This document shows, piece by piece, positions 25,063 to 35,074 of a DNA stretch of 38,177 nucleotides. The stretch spans positions 1 through 38,177 of the IMG/VR virus record IMGVR_UViG_3300040801_001118; one strand, given 5' to 3'. A program made the translations under genes and the position numbers. The stretch comes from a virus. The notes beneath the pieces are model-generated. The model was not told the DNA's origin, searched no databases, and saw only the letters and a list, made by a program, of their open reading frames with translations. Positions within the stretch are counted from its first letter, which is position 1. Each line of letters starts with the position of its first letter.

Positions 25063-25305
25063 ATGAACGAAATTCTTATAATCATAGTAGGTATTATAAT
25101 GCCACTACTAACAGCTTCAGCAAAGAAATGGGGACTTTCTCCAAGGACAGCTACATTAACTATGTCAATTATTATTGGAGCAGCTTATGTTGCATTCCAA
25201 CAATATTTCCCAACTTCACTTAAAACAGAAGTAATTCAATTCACAACTCAAGTATTTACTATTGGTTGGGTTGTTTATAACTTTCTAATTAAAGATAATA
25301 AATAG
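25063..25305 (+). CDS. holin-like small membrane protein
   Basis: An 80-residue protein with two or three hydrophobic segments: 'ILIIIVGIIMPLLTA' (about 4-18), 'ATLTMSIIIGAAYVAF' (about 30-45) and 'TTQVFTIGWVVYNFLI' (about 61-76), a basic loop (AKKWGLSPR) and a charged end. This size and topology fit a class II-type holin. It starts one base after the endolysin stop. Holins trigger lysis by opening the inner membrane. No specific family motif is seen. Confidence 0.6.
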   Translation: MNEILIIIVGIIMPLLTASAKKWGLSPRTATLTMSIIIGAAYVAFQQYFPTSLKTEVIQFTTQVFTIGWVVYNFLIKDNK

Positions 25306-25344
25306 TAAAAAACTATTGTTTAATACAAAAAAATAATTTATAAT
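25305..25344 (+). promoter_or_regulatory. conserved 40-base promoter module, copy 1
   Basis: Element GTAAAAAACTATTG at 25305-25318 overlaps a -35 TTGTTT (25316-25321). A 17-base spacer follows, then -10 TATAAT (25339-25344). It aligns without gaps with 31285-31324 and 35035-35074. It drives the lipoprotein gene at 25365. Confidence 0.8.
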
Positions 25345-26023: not shown

Positions 26024-26024
26024 G

Positions 26025-26174
26025 ATGAAGATTTGTGAATATTGCGGTAGTACAAAGGATAATGCTGATGTAACACTGAGTAGTGGACAGGAGTTTTCTA
26101 TTTGTGATGAATGTATCAATAAATTGAAAATTGATTTACCTGATGAAAACTTCATAACATTTGAAGTACTCTAA
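26025..26174 (+). CDS. small zinc-finger protein, ClpX-type Cys4 pattern
   Basis: A 49-residue protein reading MKICEYCGSTKDNADVTLSS and ending with a second pair, 'CDECINK'. The CxxC-x20ish-CxxC spacing resembles the treble-clef zinc finger at the N-terminus of ClpX. It is preceded by GGAGG (26014-26018), starts one base after the previous stop, and its TAA overlaps the next ATG (TAATG). It may be an adaptor-like or anti-host microprotein; this is inference from the fold type only. Confidence 0.6.
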   Translation: MKICEYCGSTKDNADVTLSSGQEFSICDECINKLKIDLPDENFITFEVL

Positions 26175-26353
26175 TGGCTGATCTAGTTATCTATAGGATA
26201 AAAGAAAATCACAGTTACACTTGCGATAAATGCGGATGCTTTGCTATATACAGAATATTGAGTAGTTTCAGAGAAGCTTTTTGTTGTAGCGGACTTAACT
26301 GCTACTCTATTATTTATGACTATGTTAAAGGAGATATTGATGAGATACCGTGA
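26174..26353 (+). CDS. small Cys-rich protein
   Basis: A 59-residue protein with 'TCDKCGCF' and 'CCSGLNCY' clusters, a likely zinc ribbon. It ends at TGA 26351-26353, which supports TGA as a stop in this genome. Its start lies in the previous stop (TAATG) and its end overlaps the next gene by 14 bases, so the cassette is translationally coupled. No function is recognised beyond probable metal binding. Confidence 0.55.
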   Translation: MADLVIYRIKENHSYTCDKCGCFAIYRILSSFREAFCCSGLNCYSIIYDYVKGDIDEIP

Positions 26354-26534
26354 TGTAAGAGAAAGGAGAAGCAATAAGCCTATCCATAAAATTATCAACG
26401 ATAATGTTACAGAGTCTTCAAAAGAAGAAGTTACAAGGATAATAAAGATTATCGAGGATGATAGAGAGCTTCTAAAAGAGATTGATAAGAAGTTAAAGGA
26501 AGCCATTAGTCTTTTTGATAAAAGACACAAATAA
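26340..26534 (+). CDS. small helical charged protein
   Basis: Start chosen at 26340 because AAAGGAG (26327-26333) lies six bases upstream; an earlier ATG at 26316 has no such signal. The 64-residue product is basic at the N-terminus (MRYRDVRERRSNKP) and then forms a long amphipathic Lys/Glu helix (about 25-64), suggesting a coiled-coil or nucleic-acid-associated microprotein. It is the last gene before the intrinsic terminator at 26540-26565. No family is recognised. Confidence 0.55.
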   Translation: MRYRDVRERRSNKPIHKIINDNVTESSKEEVTRIIKIIEDDRELLKEIDKKLKEAISLFDKRHK

Positions 26535-26539
26535 AAAAA

Positions 26540-26565
26540 GATCCCCAAATTAATGGGGGTCTTTT
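26540..26565 (+). terminator. intrinsic terminator, likely bidirectional
   Basis: GATCCCC (26540-26546), 8-base loop, GGGGGTC (26555-26561), then TTTT. A run of A upstream of the stem gives a U-tract on the minus strand as well. The hairpin separates converging cassettes: the + strand micro-genes and the - strand genes at 26564-27500. Confidence 0.85.
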
Positions 26566-26809
26566 ATTTAATTAAAGCAAAGATTCTCATCTCTGTTTCT
26601 ACAGCACACTCAAGACAGTTGCAGGCATACAAATAATAACCCTCACCAGTCTTTTCATTATAACCTTCAAACCTATATAAAACATTTCCATTACAGACAT
26701 CACATGATTCATCTGTATTATTATGTTCTTTAGTTATCCAAAGTTTTATGTGAAAGTTCTTTTTCGGGTCGCCTATCCCCTTTCTTACCGCCTTGCTCTT
26801 ATTAGACAC
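26564..26809 (-). CDS. zinc-ribbon protein (minus strand)
   Basis: An 81-residue protein with CDVCNG (about 36-41) and 'CNCLEC' (about 64-69), a Cys4+ zinc ribbon, and a basic N-terminus (MSNKSKAVRKG). It starts with GTG, with GGAGG (plus-strand CCTCC at 26815-26819) five bases upstream: a strong Shine-Dalgarno. A palindrome TAATAGT-n4-ACTATTA (26821-26838) lies next to the ribosome site and overlaps a possible -10. This is a regulated small gene in the opposite direction to nearly all others. Its role is unknown. Confidence 0.65.
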   Translation of the reverse strand: MSNKSKAVRKGIGDPKKNFHIKLWITKEHNNTDESCDVCNGNVLYRFEGYNEKTGEGYYLYACNCLECAVETEMRIFALIK

Positions 26810-26820
26810 AATAACCTCCG

Positions 26821-26838
26821 TAATAGTTATTACTATTA
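26821..26838 (-). promoter_or_regulatory. operator-like palindrome upstream of the minus-strand zinc-ribbon gene
   Basis: Perfect inverted repeat TAATAGT (26821-26827) and ACTATTA (26832-26838) with a 4-base centre. On the minus strand TATAAT (plus 26835-26840) overlaps its edge, with a weak -35 TTTCCT 17 bases further up. It is positioned where a repressor would block the -10 or the ribosome site. Confidence 0.4.
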
Positions 26839-27357
26839 TAGAGGCTTTTTGTTTAATAGGAAATCAATTCTTGGTTTATTCCACTTTTTAATTACAAAAT
26901 CATTTATTTTATTAGCTTTTTCCTTCAGTGCCTGAACAATCTGTGGTCGTGTGAGATCAGCCAAAACAAACGAATTACATTTTCCTCTATCTAGAATCCC
27001 CCTACTCTCTAAATGTTTTGCGAGTTTAACTGATTTATTGTGGGCAATGCCAAAGTAATTCTTAACATGCACCTGACGGAAGCTTTTGAACTTAACCAGA
27101 TACTCTACCAGCTCATGAATTTCTATTCCGAACACTAATTCCGATTTCCTATTCGGTTTTATTTTTTTTATTATGGCATTGCAGAGTTTGAGCAAGTTCT
27201 TTCTATACTTTACCAGAACAATTGCTACAAGGCATTTAAACGCTATAAAATGATAGAAACTTGCCAAGGCGATTAATATACTAGGTTTTGCCATAAAAGC
27301 CGTTAAAACTAAGATGAGGGCGAAATAAGGCATGTTCTGTAGTTGTTTGCTACTCAT
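26836..27357 (-). CDS. membrane-anchored winged-helix protein, FtsK-gamma-like
   Basis: A 173-residue protein. The first 50 residues hold two hydrophobic segments ('YFALILVLTAFMA' and 'HFIAFKCLVAIVLVKY'). A basic linker follows, then a winged-helix region (about 85-150) with 'HELVEYLVKFKSFRQVHVKN' and 'AKHLESRGILDRGKCNSFVL'. That region resembles the C-terminal gamma domain of FtsK/SpoIIIE, which reads DNA polarity signals. The AAA motor between membrane part and gamma domain is missing. It may tether DNA or act as a membrane-bound regulator. The start is inside the stop codon of the small gene upstream (TAATG). Confidence 0.6.
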   Translation of the reverse strand: MSSKQLQNMPYFALILVLTAFMAKPSILIALASFYHFIAFKCLVAIVLVKYRKNLLKLCNAIIKKIKPNRKSELVFGIEIHELVEYLVKFKSFRQVHVKNYFGIAHNKSVKLAKHLESRGILDRGKCNSFVLADLTRPQIVQALKEKANKINDFVIKKWNKPRIDFLLNKKPL

Positions 27358-27500
27358 TATATTAAGTTAATTGTAATTAATATAATTGTTTGAATTGCGG
27401 CGCAAATTCCTACCACCATATAAAAGTCTTTATCTGATACATTGTTTTCTCTGTTAATCATCTCAATGATTGCGATGTCGTGTAATATTTGGTTTTTCAT
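27357..27500 (-). CDS. small membrane protein (minus strand)
   Basis: A 47-residue protein with an N-terminal soluble stretch (MKNQILHDIAIIEMINREN) and one C-terminal membrane helix ('GICAAIQTIILITINLI'). Its stop shares one base with the start of the winged-helix gene, so the two are coupled. The leader AACCAAAACAACT precedes the ATG, like the accessory-gene leaders on the plus strand. A minus-strand promoter with 17-base spacing lies 40 bases upstream. It could be a partner subunit of the membrane-bound regulator. Confidence 0.55.
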   Translation of the reverse strand: MKNQILHDIAIIEMINRENNVSDKDFYMVVGICAAIQTIILITINLI

Positions 27501-27539
27501 AGTTGTTTTGGTTATTTATTTTTATTAAACTATACTATA

Positions 27540-27568
27540 ATTATAACATAATTTACTACAAAACACAA
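27540..27568 (-). promoter_or_regulatory. sigma-70-type promoter for the minus-strand cluster
   Basis: On the minus strand: -35 TTGTGT (plus 27563-27568), 17-base spacer, -10 TATAAT (plus 27540-27545). It faces left, about 40 bases before the ATG at 27500. It is divergent from the rightward replication operon that starts at 27662. Confidence 0.65.
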
Positions 27569-27598
27569 GCCTTTTTAGTTGTTTTTAACAATAAATAC

Positions 27599-27627
27599 TT
27601 GTTTTTAGTTATAATTTATGATAAGAA
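27599..27627 (+). promoter_or_regulatory. possible promoter for the replication operon
   Basis: TTGTTT (27599-27604), 17-base spacer, TAAGAA (27622-27627). The -10 is weak. TTGTTTTTA occurs twice (27579-27587 and 27599-27607), so the first copy may be an operator repeat. Divergent arrangement with the minus promoter suggests a switch region. Confidence 0.35.
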
Positions 27628-27661
27628 TTAAACACAATCAAAATCAACTAACCAAAATAAA

Positions 27662-28893: not shown

Positions 28894-29172
28894 ATGGAAG
28901 AGAAGATAATGGCATCAGTTTGGGTTAGATTGCCAAATGTAGAGACAGCGGCTATTTACAATATACTATTGTACCTATGCCACCAACACGGAGGTACTTG
29001 TTACCCATCAATAAAAACATTATCAGAGTATACAAAAATGGGTAATAAAAGAGTTTCAAAGAACCTGAATAAACTTATAGAAATTGGAATAATACAAAAG
29101 AAAACCCGTTTCAATAAGAGTACAATTTATAGAGTTTTAGAACCAGAACAGGCACTTGAAATATTAAAATAA
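28894..29172 (+). CDS. winged-helix protein, candidate replication initiator (HTH_36-like)
   Basis: A 92-residue protein with 'AAIYNILLYLCHQHGGTCYP' and 'SIKTLSEYTKMGNKRVSKNL' followed by 'NKLIEIGIIQKKTRF', i.e. the HTH_36-type winged helix used by many phage replication initiators and plasmid Rep-like proteins. It stands alone; no ATP-loading or DnaD-type domain follows. A noncoding stretch with repeated GTCnAwwyGAC sites (29190-29307) lies immediately downstream, then DnaB. That order suggests it binds those sites and loads the helicase. A pure transcription factor is the alternative. A second in-frame ATG is at codon 6. Confidence 0.65.
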   Translation: MEEKIMASVWVRLPNVETAAIYNILLYLCHQHGGTCYPSIKTLSEYTKMGNKRVSKNLNKLIEIGIIQKKTRFNKSTIYRVLEPEQALEILK

Positions 29173-29420
29173 TAGTTAGTTTTAGTGCGGTCAATTCGAC
29201 TGTAGTCAATTTGACATCAGTACTTATGAATAGTCACTCATTAGTACGTAGAGGTCAAAACGACATTCTATATTATATTATATAATATAATAGTGTGTCG
29301 ATTCGACATCACTAACTATTTACAGAGTATTTTAATTAGTTTGCCTTGTTCCACATTGCCCCTAAGGGGGGCAAGTGAAACAATCGCAAACGAGAGAAAA
29401 ACAAAGCTAATCAACCAAAC
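29173..29420 (+). other. candidate replication origin: iteron-like sites around an AT palindrome
   Basis: This 248-base gap has no gene. It contains four copies of an 11-base imperfect palindrome GTCnAwwyGAC at 29190-29200, 29205-29215, 29254-29264 and 29297-29307. Between the third and fourth lies a perfect 22-base palindrome made only of A and T (29271-29292, half-site TATTATATTAT). A long hairpin (29346-29383) follows. Placement between a winged-helix initiator-like gene and the DnaB gene, with an easily melted AT core, is the layout of many phage and plasmid origins. Confidence 0.6.
29346..29383 (+). other. long imperfect hairpin before dnaB
   Basis: Paired arms TTGTT/AACAA, CAC/GTG and TTGCCCC/GGGGCAA, with one mismatch and one bulge, form a 15-bp stem with a 5-base loop (29363-29367). 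No T-run follows. It could regulate dnaB expression, act as a U-less terminator, or serve as a single-strand initiation structure in the origin. Confidence 0.5.
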
Positions 29421-31284: not shown

Positions 31285-31324
31285 GTAAAAAACTATTGCT
31301 TTCTACAAAAATATAATGTATAGT
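31285..31324 (+). promoter_or_regulatory. conserved 40-base promoter module, copy 2 (ssb)
   Basis: GTAAAAAACTATTG (31285-31298) overlaps -35 TTGCTT (31296-31301); 17-base spacer; -10 TATAGT (31319-31324). The inverted repeat GTAAAAA...TTTCTAC has one mismatch. It restarts transcription for ssb after the homing endonuclease gene. Confidence 0.8.
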
Positions 31325-31354: not shown

Positions 31355-31768
31355 ATGGCAAGCCTAAATCAAATCACATTAATCGGGAATCTAACAAAAG
31401 ATCCCGAGACAAAGACGTTCGAGAATGGAGGTTCAGTAACCAACATCTCAGTCGCTACAAACTACACTTACAAACGTAAGGATGGTGAGAAGGTAGAAGA
31501 GACAGAGTTCTTCGACTGCGTACTAAACGGACACAGCGCAAAGTTCGCACAAGACTACGCTCACAAAGGAATGAACGTATTCGTTCAAGGTAGATTAAAG
31601 ACAGACACCTACGAAAAAGACGGAGTTACACAATACCGTAAGAAAGTACGAGGTGATCAATTCTCAATCTTGGGAAATAAAAGTGACAACTCGACTCAAG
31701 ATAATAACTACGAGGCAAGTTCTACTGAAGCAAAGACAGACGTGGAAACGGAGTTCGATAAACTCTAA
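31355..31768 (+). CDS. ssb: single-stranded DNA-binding protein
   Basis: A 137-residue SSB: 'NQITLIGNLTKDPETK', 'VTNISVATNYTYKR', 'ETEFFDCVLNGHSAKFAQDY' and 'KGMNVFVQGRLKTDTYEKDG' form the OB-fold. The tail is acidic and Ser/Thr/Asn-rich, ending EFDKL. It lacks the exact DDIPF tip of bacterial SSBs but is acidic enough to recruit partners. It coats single strands for DnaB and Sak4. It has its own copy of the shared promoter. Confidence 0.93.
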   Translation: MASLNQITLIGNLTKDPETKTFENGGSVTNISVATNYTYKRKDGEKVEETEFFDCVLNGHSAKFAQDYAHKGMNVFVQGRLKTDTYEKDGVTQYRKKVRGDQFSILGNKSDNSTQDNNYEASSTEAKTDVETEFDKL

Positions 31769-31815: not shown

Positions 31816-32043
31816 ATGGGATATTTTTCAGACATACACGCTCAAAAGCACGGATACTTTGAGAACGAGAAACGCCAAGCCCAGAAGGAAATGCAACAAG
31901 CAAACACACCAACCAATGACGACAGACCAACAACAGAAGACCGACCAGATGAATACCTACAAGAACGTAAAGCACACCAACACAGATTAAGCATAGAAAA
32001 CGAAATGATAAACAGAGCCGTAAATAGAGGCAGTCACTGGTAA
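31816..32043 (+). CDS. small hypothetical protein
   Basis: A 75-residue, very polar protein rich in Glu, Gln, Arg and Asn (MGYFSDIHAQKHGYFENEKR, then 'PTNDDRPTTEDRPDEYLQ'). It has no membrane or Cys motif and is probably partly disordered. It lies between ssb and a structured RNA-like element. No family is recognised. Confidence 0.5.
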   Translation: MGYFSDIHAQKHGYFENEKRQAQKEMQQANTPTNDDRPTTEDRPDEYLQERKAHQHRLSIENEMINRAVNRGSHW

Positions 32044-32077
32044 AACCAACCAAGCACCTTAACATCTCGGAAACCAC

Positions 32078-32291
32078 ATCAAGGGTTTAAGGCTGTCGCA
32101 TAGGGGCAGTGGTAGGGAACTGGTAAGCCCTACTGTAAAATATAGCTTACCACAACATGTTGAAACAATATGATTGGCAAAAACCAAAGTATTGTTCGGG
32201 TACTCACAAGCCCGTATAGCTTGTGTTATCGCTTTTGGGCACCCCCGAGTTTTAGTTACATTTTACTCGGGGTCAGCCTCAAGCCCTTGAT
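32078..32291 (+). ncRNA. candidate structured noncoding RNA closed by an 18-bp stem
   Basis: In a 271-base gene-free gap, ATCAAGGGTTTAAGGCTG (32078-32095) and CAGCCTCAAGCCCTTGAT (32274-32291) pair at 17 of 18 positions (one G-U, one A-C mismatch). Inside are stems AACAATA/TATTGTT (32164-32170/32190-32196) with an inner TTGG/CCAA, CACAAGC/GCTTGTG (32205-32211/32219-32225) and CCCCGAGT/ACTCGGGG (32243-32250/32265-32272). Also present are GTAGGG/CCCTAC (32112-32117/32128-32133) and TGGTAAGC/GCTTACCA (32121-32128/32145-32152), which cross and could form a pseudoknot. The sequence is less AT-rich than its surroundings. I do not recognise it as RNase P, tmRNA, 6S or a group I intron. Strand is inferred from gene direction. 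Confidence 0.6.
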
Positions 32292-32314
32292 AAAAATAAA
32301 ATTAAAGAAACAAA

Positions 32315-32692
32315 ATGTCAGTAGTAAATCCAACAAAAGAATTTGTTAACGCAGCCAAAAGAGCAAAGGATCGAGCAATGATTAGGGATAAGCAATCAAA
32401 GCATGGATTCCTAAGATTAAAAAGATGCTCTAAATGTTATCTGTGGTTCCAAACAAAATGGAATAGATACTATCAAAAGGGCGGAGCCTATAAAGCAGAA
32501 TGCCCACTATGTTTATGCGAAAGCAACAAGAAGTATAAAGAAAAACTACTTGAAGACCAACCAGATTATAAAGCATTCTATAATAGGAAGGTAAAAGAGC
32601 ATTTACATAAGTTAGAAGAGTTGAAACGTGAAAACGAAGCACAAGGAATAAAGGTAACTGGTTCAATGGAATGCAAAAGAAAATTAATTTAA
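32315..32692 (+). CDS. zinc-finger hypothetical protein
   Basis: A 125-residue basic protein with 'RCSKCYLW' (about 37-44) and 'CPLCLCES' (about 62-69), forming a likely zinc ribbon, flanked by Lys/Arg-rich helices. Such small basic zinc proteins in phages are often nucleic-acid binding or nuclease-related (HNH-like Cys clusters), but the histidine-rich core of HNH is not visible. It starts right after the structured RNA element. Confidence 0.6.
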   Translation: MSVVNPTKEFVNAAKRAKDRAMIRDKQSKHGFLRLKRCSKCYLWFQTKWNRYYQKGGAYKAECPLCLCESNKKYKEKLLEDQPDYKAFYNRKVKEHLHKLEELKRENEAQGIKVTGSMECKRKLI

Positions 32693-33260: not shown

Positions 33261-33635
33261 ATGGCAAAACAAAACAAAAGCACAGAAAAAGAAATAGAAA
33301 GGAGCATTGTTGATTATTTAAGACTAAAAGGATTTTGGGCAGAAGCAATGCAAAGTGGAAGTATTGCAGTCGCAAATGCAAACGGTGGATATAGACGGGT
33401 CAATATGTGTTCAGCTGGTGTACCAGATGTGATTGCATGTGTTAGGGGGGTATTTCTAGGAATAGAAGTAAAAAAGGACGCCAAGGAGATAGCAAAATGG
33501 CGCAAACAATCAGATAAGAGGTCACAAGACCAACACAGACAAAAGGACATGATTATGGGAGCAGGGGGAAAGTTTCTCATAGTTTCAAGCGTAGAGGACG
33601 TAGTGCAAGACCTACACACATTAGGATTAACATAA
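33261..33635 (+). CDS. VRR-NUC domain nuclease
   Basis: A 124-residue nuclease: an N-terminal helix 'TEKEIERSIVDYLRLKG', the catalytic region 'CSAGVPDVIACVRGVFLGIE' with the PD...ExK-type residues (D in GVPDV, E and K in IEVKK), then 'QDQHRQKDMIMGAGGKFLIV'. That is the VRR-NUC fold, found as a small free-standing nuclease in many phages, which can resolve branched DNA. It may take part in replication-linked processing or host DNA breakdown. Confidence 0.85.
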   Translation: MAKQNKSTEKEIERSIVDYLRLKGFWAEAMQSGSIAVANANGGYRRVNMCSAGVPDVIACVRGVFLGIEVKKDAKEIAKWRKQSDKRSQDQHRQKDMIMGAGGKFLIVSSVEDVVQDLHTLGLT

Positions 33636-34970: not shown

Positions 34971-34995
34971 AAAAGCACTCGAAAGGGTGCTTTTT
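34971..34995 (+). terminator. intrinsic terminator
   Basis: AAAAGCACTC (34971-34980), GAAA tetraloop, GGGTGCTTTTT (34985-34995): GC-containing stem with a U-tract. It ends the operon that includes the VRR-NUC gene. The next promoter module begins 40 bases later. Confidence 0.85.
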
Positions 34996-35034: not shown

Positions 35035-35074
35035 GTAAAAAACTATTGCTTTTTACAAAAAAGTACGCTATAAT
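35035..35074 (+). promoter_or_regulatory. conserved 40-base promoter module, copy 3
   Basis: GTAAAAAACTATTG (35035-35048) over -35 TTGCTT (35046-35051), 17-base spacer, -10 TATAAT (35069-35074). The inverted repeat GTAAAAA...TTTTTAC (35035-35041 and 35050-35056) is perfect here. It drives the accessory operon starting at 35105. Confidence 0.85.

What the first reader, a model, noticed from the sequence alone, without database searches (positions are those of the whole stretch)
32078..32291. Unrecognised structured RNA candidate closed by an 18-bp stem
Seen directly: two 18-base arms 178 bases apart pair at 17 of 18 positions, and five shorter perfect stems lie between them. Two of these (GTAGGG/CCCTAC and TGGTAAGC/GCTTACCA) cross as in a pseudoknot. 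The element occupies a gene-free gap in a genome that otherwise packs genes tightly, and it is richer in G and C than its flanks. It matches none of RNase P, tmRNA, 6S RNA or group I intron cores as I know them. It lies just downstream of ssb and one small gene, so it may be an early phage RNA acting on host translation, packaging or defence.
Basis: partly seen in the sequence, partly recalled or inferred. Interest (0 to 1): 0.75.

Follow-up and report, generated by a model that had tools for sequence, protein, structure and literature searches.

The report
Orphan phage RNA with twin pseudoknots
Between two genes of a little-known phage lies a 214-base stretch that very probably folds, as RNA, into a closed ring holding two related knot-like structures; no relative is known, and it most likely helps control the phage genes around it.

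Summary
Arms 32078-32095 and 32274-32291 pair at 17 of 18 positions as RNA (16 Watson-Crick, one G-U), enclosing hairpins and a crossing pair of stems. The element is among the most stably folding regions of the record (z about -4.7 to -6 on +, -5.6 to -5.9 on -). It is gene-free and matches no Rfam family.

New here: the + strand holds two H-type pseudoknots, not one. PK1 (32112-32152) and PK2 (32197-32225) look like diverged copies: identical letters sit at the stem junction and in the loops, while distal pairs differ by compensatory changes (four pairs by hand, three in the tool's alignment). One of 4000 shuffles holds two such pseudoknots. Loop lengths favour the + strand, which is also the gene strand.

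No homologue was found in phage, plasmid, IMG/VR or 395 Bacteroidota genomes, so cross-species covariation is untested. The element lies in an ssb-led operon, 23 bases before the start of a 125-codon gene, with UAAA/UUAAA repeats between. My best reading is a cis-acting, protein-bound intercistronic operator working like the T4 gene 32 operator (about 0.38); the main rival is an excised trans-acting RNA (about 0.30). STAXI RNA, tandem pseudoknots near ssb, is the closest known kind, but its model does not match.

The parts
32078..32095 (+). P1, 5' arm of the closing stem
32274..32291 (+). P1, 3' arm of the closing stem (16 Watson-Crick + 1 G-U + 1 mismatch with the 5' arm)
32112..32152 (+). 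PK1, H-type pseudoknot: S1 32112-32117/32128-32133 (6 bp), L1 32118-32120, S2 32121-32127/32146-32152 (7 bp), no L2, A-rich L3 32134-32145
   Evidence: strongest such pseudoknot on the + strand of the record
32164..32196 (+). P4 hairpin: 32164-32170/32190-32196 with inner stem 32174-32177/32184-32187
32197..32225 (+). PK2, H-type pseudoknot: S1 32197-32200/32211-32214 (4 bp), L1 32201-32204, S2 32205-32210/32220-32225 (6 bp), no L2, L3 32215-32219 (TATAG)
   Evidence: diverged copy of PK1
32243..32272 (+). P2 hairpin CCCCGAGT/ACTCGGGG, 14-nt loop
32292..32314 (+). Unstructured UAAA/UAAA/UUAAA-bearing translation initiation region of the 125-codon gene
   Evidence: most TAAA words of all gene starts checked
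32315..32692 (+). Downstream 125-codon gene, lysine-rich with paired cysteines (zinc-ribbon-like by eye), candidate regulated gene; no family or phage match
   Evidence: single-sequence fold unusable
31296..31324 (+). Putative operon promoter TTGCTT-17-TATAGT, one of three copies of a 27-nt promoter-like repeat (25305, 31285, 35035)
31355..31768 (+). ssb, first gene of the operon (phrog_44)
31816..32043 (+). 75-codon gene before the element
34971..34994 (+). Terminator-like hairpin that would end the operon transcript

Best explanation
The 214 nt are a + strand RNA domain inside the polycistronic mRNA that starts before ssb. Shown by sequence and statistics: P1 closes a ring containing PK1, hairpin P4, PK2 and hairpin P2; PK1 and PK2 are similar H-type pseudoknots. 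Inferred: the two pseudoknots are duplicated binding sites for one protein, which reads the conserved junction, L1 (AC) and L3 (UAUAG) letters. Also inferred: binding to this platform spreads to, or blocks, the unstructured UAAA/UUAAA-rich stretch between P1 and the AUG at 32315, so that translation of the 125-codon gene and the genes after it is set by the amount of that protein. The protein could be the phage SSB made upstream or the 125-aa protein itself. This works like the phage T4 gene 32 operator, where a pseudoknot nucleates binding and UUAAA/UAAA repeats next to the start codon are then covered (PMC535899). It is not claimed to be related by descent.
For: Structure beyond chance. Two H-type pseudoknots within 115 nt: 1 of 4000 dinucleotide shuffles has two, 4 have one of 13 bp or more; only nine such hits (some overlapping) on the whole + strand. 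Junction-anchored letters agree at 14 of 18 positions between PK1 and PK2, against 0.04% of random pseudoknot pairs. Compensatory changes between the copies: U124-A149 to C207-G223, G123-C150 to A206-U224, G122-C151 to C205-G225, and A114-U131 to C197-G214 by hand; sliding the partner by 1 or 2 columns leaves none. Position: inside the ssb operon between a promoter-like repeat and a terminator, ending 23 nt before an AUG whose leader has the most TAAA words of all starts checked. The mechanism has a phage precedent (PMC535899).
Against: No homologue, so no cross-species covariation and no proof of selection. Nothing shows binding or regulation. The SSB is bacterial-type, not gp32-like. In T4 the operator precedes the gene of the binding protein; here ssb is upstream. 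Two rows give little power: 69 of 500 column shuffles reach the same covariation. Nested folding alone prefers another central pairing (-79.1) to the nested part of this fold (-65.2); adding the S1 stems brings them roughly level by hand estimate only. The nested fold is equally stable on the - strand. The pseudoknot descriptor was chosen after seeing PK1.
Confidence: 0.38

Rival explanations
1. A stable trans-acting RNA. The long P1 stem is cut (for example by RNase III) out of the operon transcript, releasing a ring-like RNA of about 200 nt whose twin pseudoknots bind or mimic a host factor, for instance as a decoy in the manner of phage RNAs that imitate type III antitoxin pseudoknots.
For: Compact closed domain with short unstructured flanks on both sides; own G+C content; twin pseudoknots, as in antitoxin repeat arrays (PMC5086642); phage precedent for pseudo-ToxI decoys (PMC3475682, abstract).
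Against: No own promoter or terminator found flanking it; P1 is shorter than typical RNase III substrates and has a mismatch; the modules are separated by P4 and are not head-to-tail repeats; no toxin or defence gene match among the genes tested.
Confidence: 0.3
2. A DNA element that works as a folded single strand during replication or entry, such as a primosome or SSB-related site or a single-strand promoter of the kind found next to ssb in plasmid leading regions.
For: The nested fold is equally good on both strands and significant with DNA parameters (z -4.32); neighbourhood of ssb, DnaB and an O-like initiator; the same idea was raised for STAXI (PMC2864571).
Against: Loop lengths of both pseudoknots (L1 3-4 nt, L3 12 and 5 nt) suit the + strand; on the complement a 3-nt loop would have to span a 7-bp stem. 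A better origin candidate lies at 29173-29335. The phage genome is presumably double-stranded.
Confidence: 0.12
3. A neutral or generic spacer: strong RNA structure that merely insulates genes or stabilises mRNA, with no specific ligand, the likeness of PK1 and PK2 being coincidence or a recent duplication.
For: No homologue anywhere searched; descriptor chosen after the fact; weak power of a two-row covariation count.
Against: Combined rarity of two H-type pseudoknots and their shared junction letters; compensatory differences instead of decay.
Confidence: 0.15

Closest known systems
STAXI RNA motif (RF01728; PMC2864571)
   Same: Tandem pseudoknots, often near genes for single-stranded DNA-binding protein; function unknown, RNA or single-stranded DNA debated.
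   Different: The STAXI model finds nothing in this record even at E 10; STAXI is reported from Enterobacteriales, with UUCG tetraloops inside its repeats. Here the modules are separated by a hairpin and enclosed in an 18-nt closing stem.
Phage T4 / RB69 gene 32 translational operator (PMC535899)
   Same: Pseudoknot in a phage intercistronic region followed by an unstructured UUAAA/UAAA stretch and a start codon; connection with an ssb gene.
   Different: T4 has one pseudoknot of about 28 nt directly before the ssb gene itself; here there are two in a 214-nt closed domain, downstream of ssb and before another gene; the SSB is bacterial-type.
Type III antitoxin RNAs (ToxI, CptI, TenpI) and phage pseudo-ToxI decoys
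   Same: Repeated H-type pseudoknots in one transcript.
   Different: No toxin gene or head-to-tail repeat array; modules 83 nt apart and of different length.
tmRNA
   Same: A stem-closed ring with several H-type pseudoknots (from general knowledge).
   Different: No tRNA-like domain or tag; ARAGORN and Rfam negative.

Membership tests
STAXI (RF01728) | Match to the family covariance model (gathering score 40.5 bits) | tested here: not met
   no match at E <= 10 in the whole record (no control genome passed the cut-off either)
STAXI (RF01728) | Pseudoknot repeated at least twice | tested here: met
   two H-type pseudoknots
STAXI (RF01728) | Near ssb or other DNA-handling genes | tested here: met
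   ssb 31355-31768; HNH and DnaB genes upstream
STAXI (RF01728) | UUCG tetraloops within the repeats (frequent, not universal) | tested here: not met
   the only TTCG (32195-32198) lies at the P4/PK2 border, not in a hairpin loop
T4 gene 32-type operator | Pseudoknot upstream of the initiation region | tested here: met
   PK2 ends 89 nt and P1 ends 23 nt before the AUG at 32315
T4 gene 32-type operator | Unstructured UUAAA/UAAA repeats next to the start codon | tested here: met
   weak, the genome is AT-rich
T4 gene 32-type operator | Controls the ssb gene itself | tested here: not met
   the next gene is the 125-codon gene; ssb lies upstream
T4 gene 32-type operator | Bound by the phage SSB | not testable with these tools
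   needs a binding assay
Type III antitoxin RNA | Tandem repeat array of short pseudoknots followed by an endoribonuclease toxin gene | tested here: not met
   no array, no toxin family match downstream
tmRNA | tRNA-like domain and tag reading frame | tested here: not met
Any Rfam 15 family (RNase P, 6S, group I intron and others) | Match above the gathering score | tested here: not met
   only a chance PsrR1 hit at E 4.4 outside the element

The most novel reading that the evidence does not exclude
A new class of phage RNA: a stem-closed ring with two paralogous pseudoknots, released from an ssb operon, that binds a host or phage protein in trans.
Probability: 0.2. Interest if true: 0.7.

Novelty: new variant of a known kind. 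Interest (0 to 1): 0.42.

Why it matters
Large structured RNAs in phages are rarely recognised, because they need many relatives for covariation. Here an apparent duplication inside one molecule supplies some covariation of its own, so a single orphan genome already gives a testable pseudoknot model. If the operator reading is right, it would be a second design for pseudoknot control in an ssb operon, in a phage whose genes start without Shine-Dalgarno sequences. If the excised-RNA reading is right, it is a new phage RNA class.

Tried and rejected
Pattern scans of IMG/VR with the P2 hairpin, the 5' joining strand, the 3' joining strand and the shared pseudoknot motif gave only chance matches on inspection and with the covariance model. 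The covariance model R1 from the single sequence found nothing in 395 Bacteroidota genomes, in 10 SSB- or pattern-linked phage records and 2 bacterial genomes or in 38 terminase-related phage records. BLASTN against phages and plasmids, and protein searches for the terminase and both flanking genes, gave no close relative; the best terminase relatives are about 40% identical. Mobile element considered: the letters just outside the P1 arms show no target-site duplication. AlphaFold of the 125-aa protein was useless (mean pLDDT 44). Reading it as a protein frame was rejected. The other structured gap (29173-29335) is not a second copy of this element.

Full report
The window is the whole of one IMG/VR virus record, 38177 bases, linear. 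It encodes terminase, portal, tape measure, Sak4-like protein, DnaB-like helicase, HNH endonuclease and SSB. Its genes run almost entirely on the + strand, and only 2 of 52 starts have a Shine-Dalgarno-like word, against 17% in random windows. Its host is unknown. Terminase relatives reach only about 40% identity, and the genes either side of the element have no match in phage records.

Observation. The closing stem has 16 Watson-Crick pairs, one G-U and one mismatch on either strand. The fold of 32070-32296 has z -4.74 on + and -5.61 on -. In a scan of 636 windows on both strands it is exceeded only by the gap before dnaB. Nothing in Rfam, tRNA or tmRNA matches, and no reading frame runs through it.

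The + strand holds a second H-type pseudoknot, PK2, 83 nt after PK1, with the same layout: S1, short L1, S2, no L2, L3. The two modules share GGG/CCC next to the junction in S1, ACT at the end of L1, AAG/CUU next to the junction in S2, and UAUAG at the end of L3. The pairs further from the junction differ, but by changes on both sides: three pairs in S2 counted by the tool and one in S1 (A114-U131 to C197-G214) counted by hand. In 4000 dinucleotide shuffles of the element, 92 had at least one such pseudoknot, one had two, and four had one of 13 bp or more. Limits: the descriptor was set after PK1 was known, and two rows give little covariation power (69 of 500 shuffles).

Strand. Nested folding does not decide it; the - strand is as stable and better defined. 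The loop lengths do favour +: L1 of 3 and 4 nt can span the deep groove of S2, and L3 of 12 and 5 nt the shallow groove of S1 (established H-type geometry, from general knowledge). On the complement a 3-nt loop would have to span a 7-bp stem. The descriptor finds both pseudoknots on + and none on -. The genes around it are on + too.

Energy. The nested part of the drawn fold scores -65.2 against a nested optimum of -79.1 kcal/mol. The S1 stems add duplex energies of -8.1 and -4.9 including initiation. By hand estimate the pseudoknotted fold is then about level with the nested optimum; no pseudoknot-aware program was available, so energetics neither prove nor exclude it.

Context. A 27-nt promoter-like sequence occurs three times on the + strand, at 25305, 31285 and 35035, with none expected by chance. 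In each copy TTGCTT or TTGTTT lies 17 nt before TATAAT or TATAGT. The middle copy precedes ssb. A terminator-like hairpin stands at 34971-34994. The likely transcript is therefore ssb, the 75-codon gene, the element, the 125-codon gene and on to about 34990. The element ends 23 nt before the 125-codon gene. That leader holds UAAA, UAAA and UUAAA, the most TAAA words of all starts checked (3 against a mean of 0.73).

Interpretation. The closest working precedent is the T4 gene 32 operator: a pseudoknot that nucleates binding of the phage SSB, followed by unstructured UUAAA/UAAA repeats at the start codon (PMC535899). I infer a cis-acting intercistronic operator read by SSB or by the 125-aa protein (0.38). 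A released trans-acting RNA is the main rival (0.30), then an unselected or generic structure (0.15) and a single-strand DNA element (0.12). The closest known kind by anatomy and address is STAXI, tandem pseudoknots near ssb (PMC2864571), but the STAXI model does not match and its frequent UUCG loops are absent, so it is not filed as STAXI.

Homologues. IMG/VR patterns, protein-led scans, BLAST of phages and plasmids, and the single-sequence covariance model in 395 Bacteroidota genomes and 48 phage records all came back empty. The tools warn that records very near the window may be left out, and a model from one sequence has limited reach, so absence is not shown. The record stays an orphan and the decisive test, covariation across relatives, is open.

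Noticed in passing
29173-29335: Strongest structure of the record (z -11 on -, -7 on +): four palindromic repeats of the type GTCAATTCGAC, a 22-nt AT-only palindrome and outer arms TAGTTAGTTTTAGTG/CACTAACTA, between an O-like initiator gene (28894-29172) and the DnaB gene; probable replication origin.
   Followed up: partly
29341-29390: Long hairpin (GTTTGC..TTGCCCC/GGGGCAA..GCAAAC) directly before the DnaB gene.
   Followed up: no
25305-25344, 31285-31324, 35035-35074: Three near-identical promoter-like repeats GTAAAAAACTATTGyTT..TACAAAAA with TATAAT/TATAGT 17 nt after TTGyTT; probable co-regulated phage promoters; the one at 35035 carries a TTGTAAAAA/TTTTTACAA dyad.
   Followed up: partly
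whole window: Gene starts lack Shine-Dalgarno words and often read like TTAACCAACAAATG (2 of 52 SD-like); host phylum not identified.
   Followed up: partly
26024-27661: Region with leftward reading frames (26183-26548, 26564-26809, 26836-27357 on -) in an otherwise rightward genome, with a terminator-like hairpin at 26536-26565; possible regulatory or lysogeny module.
   Followed up: no
33261-33635: 124-aa protein with an Hjc-type Holliday junction resolvase match in Pfam and an endonuclease PHROG.
   Followed up: no
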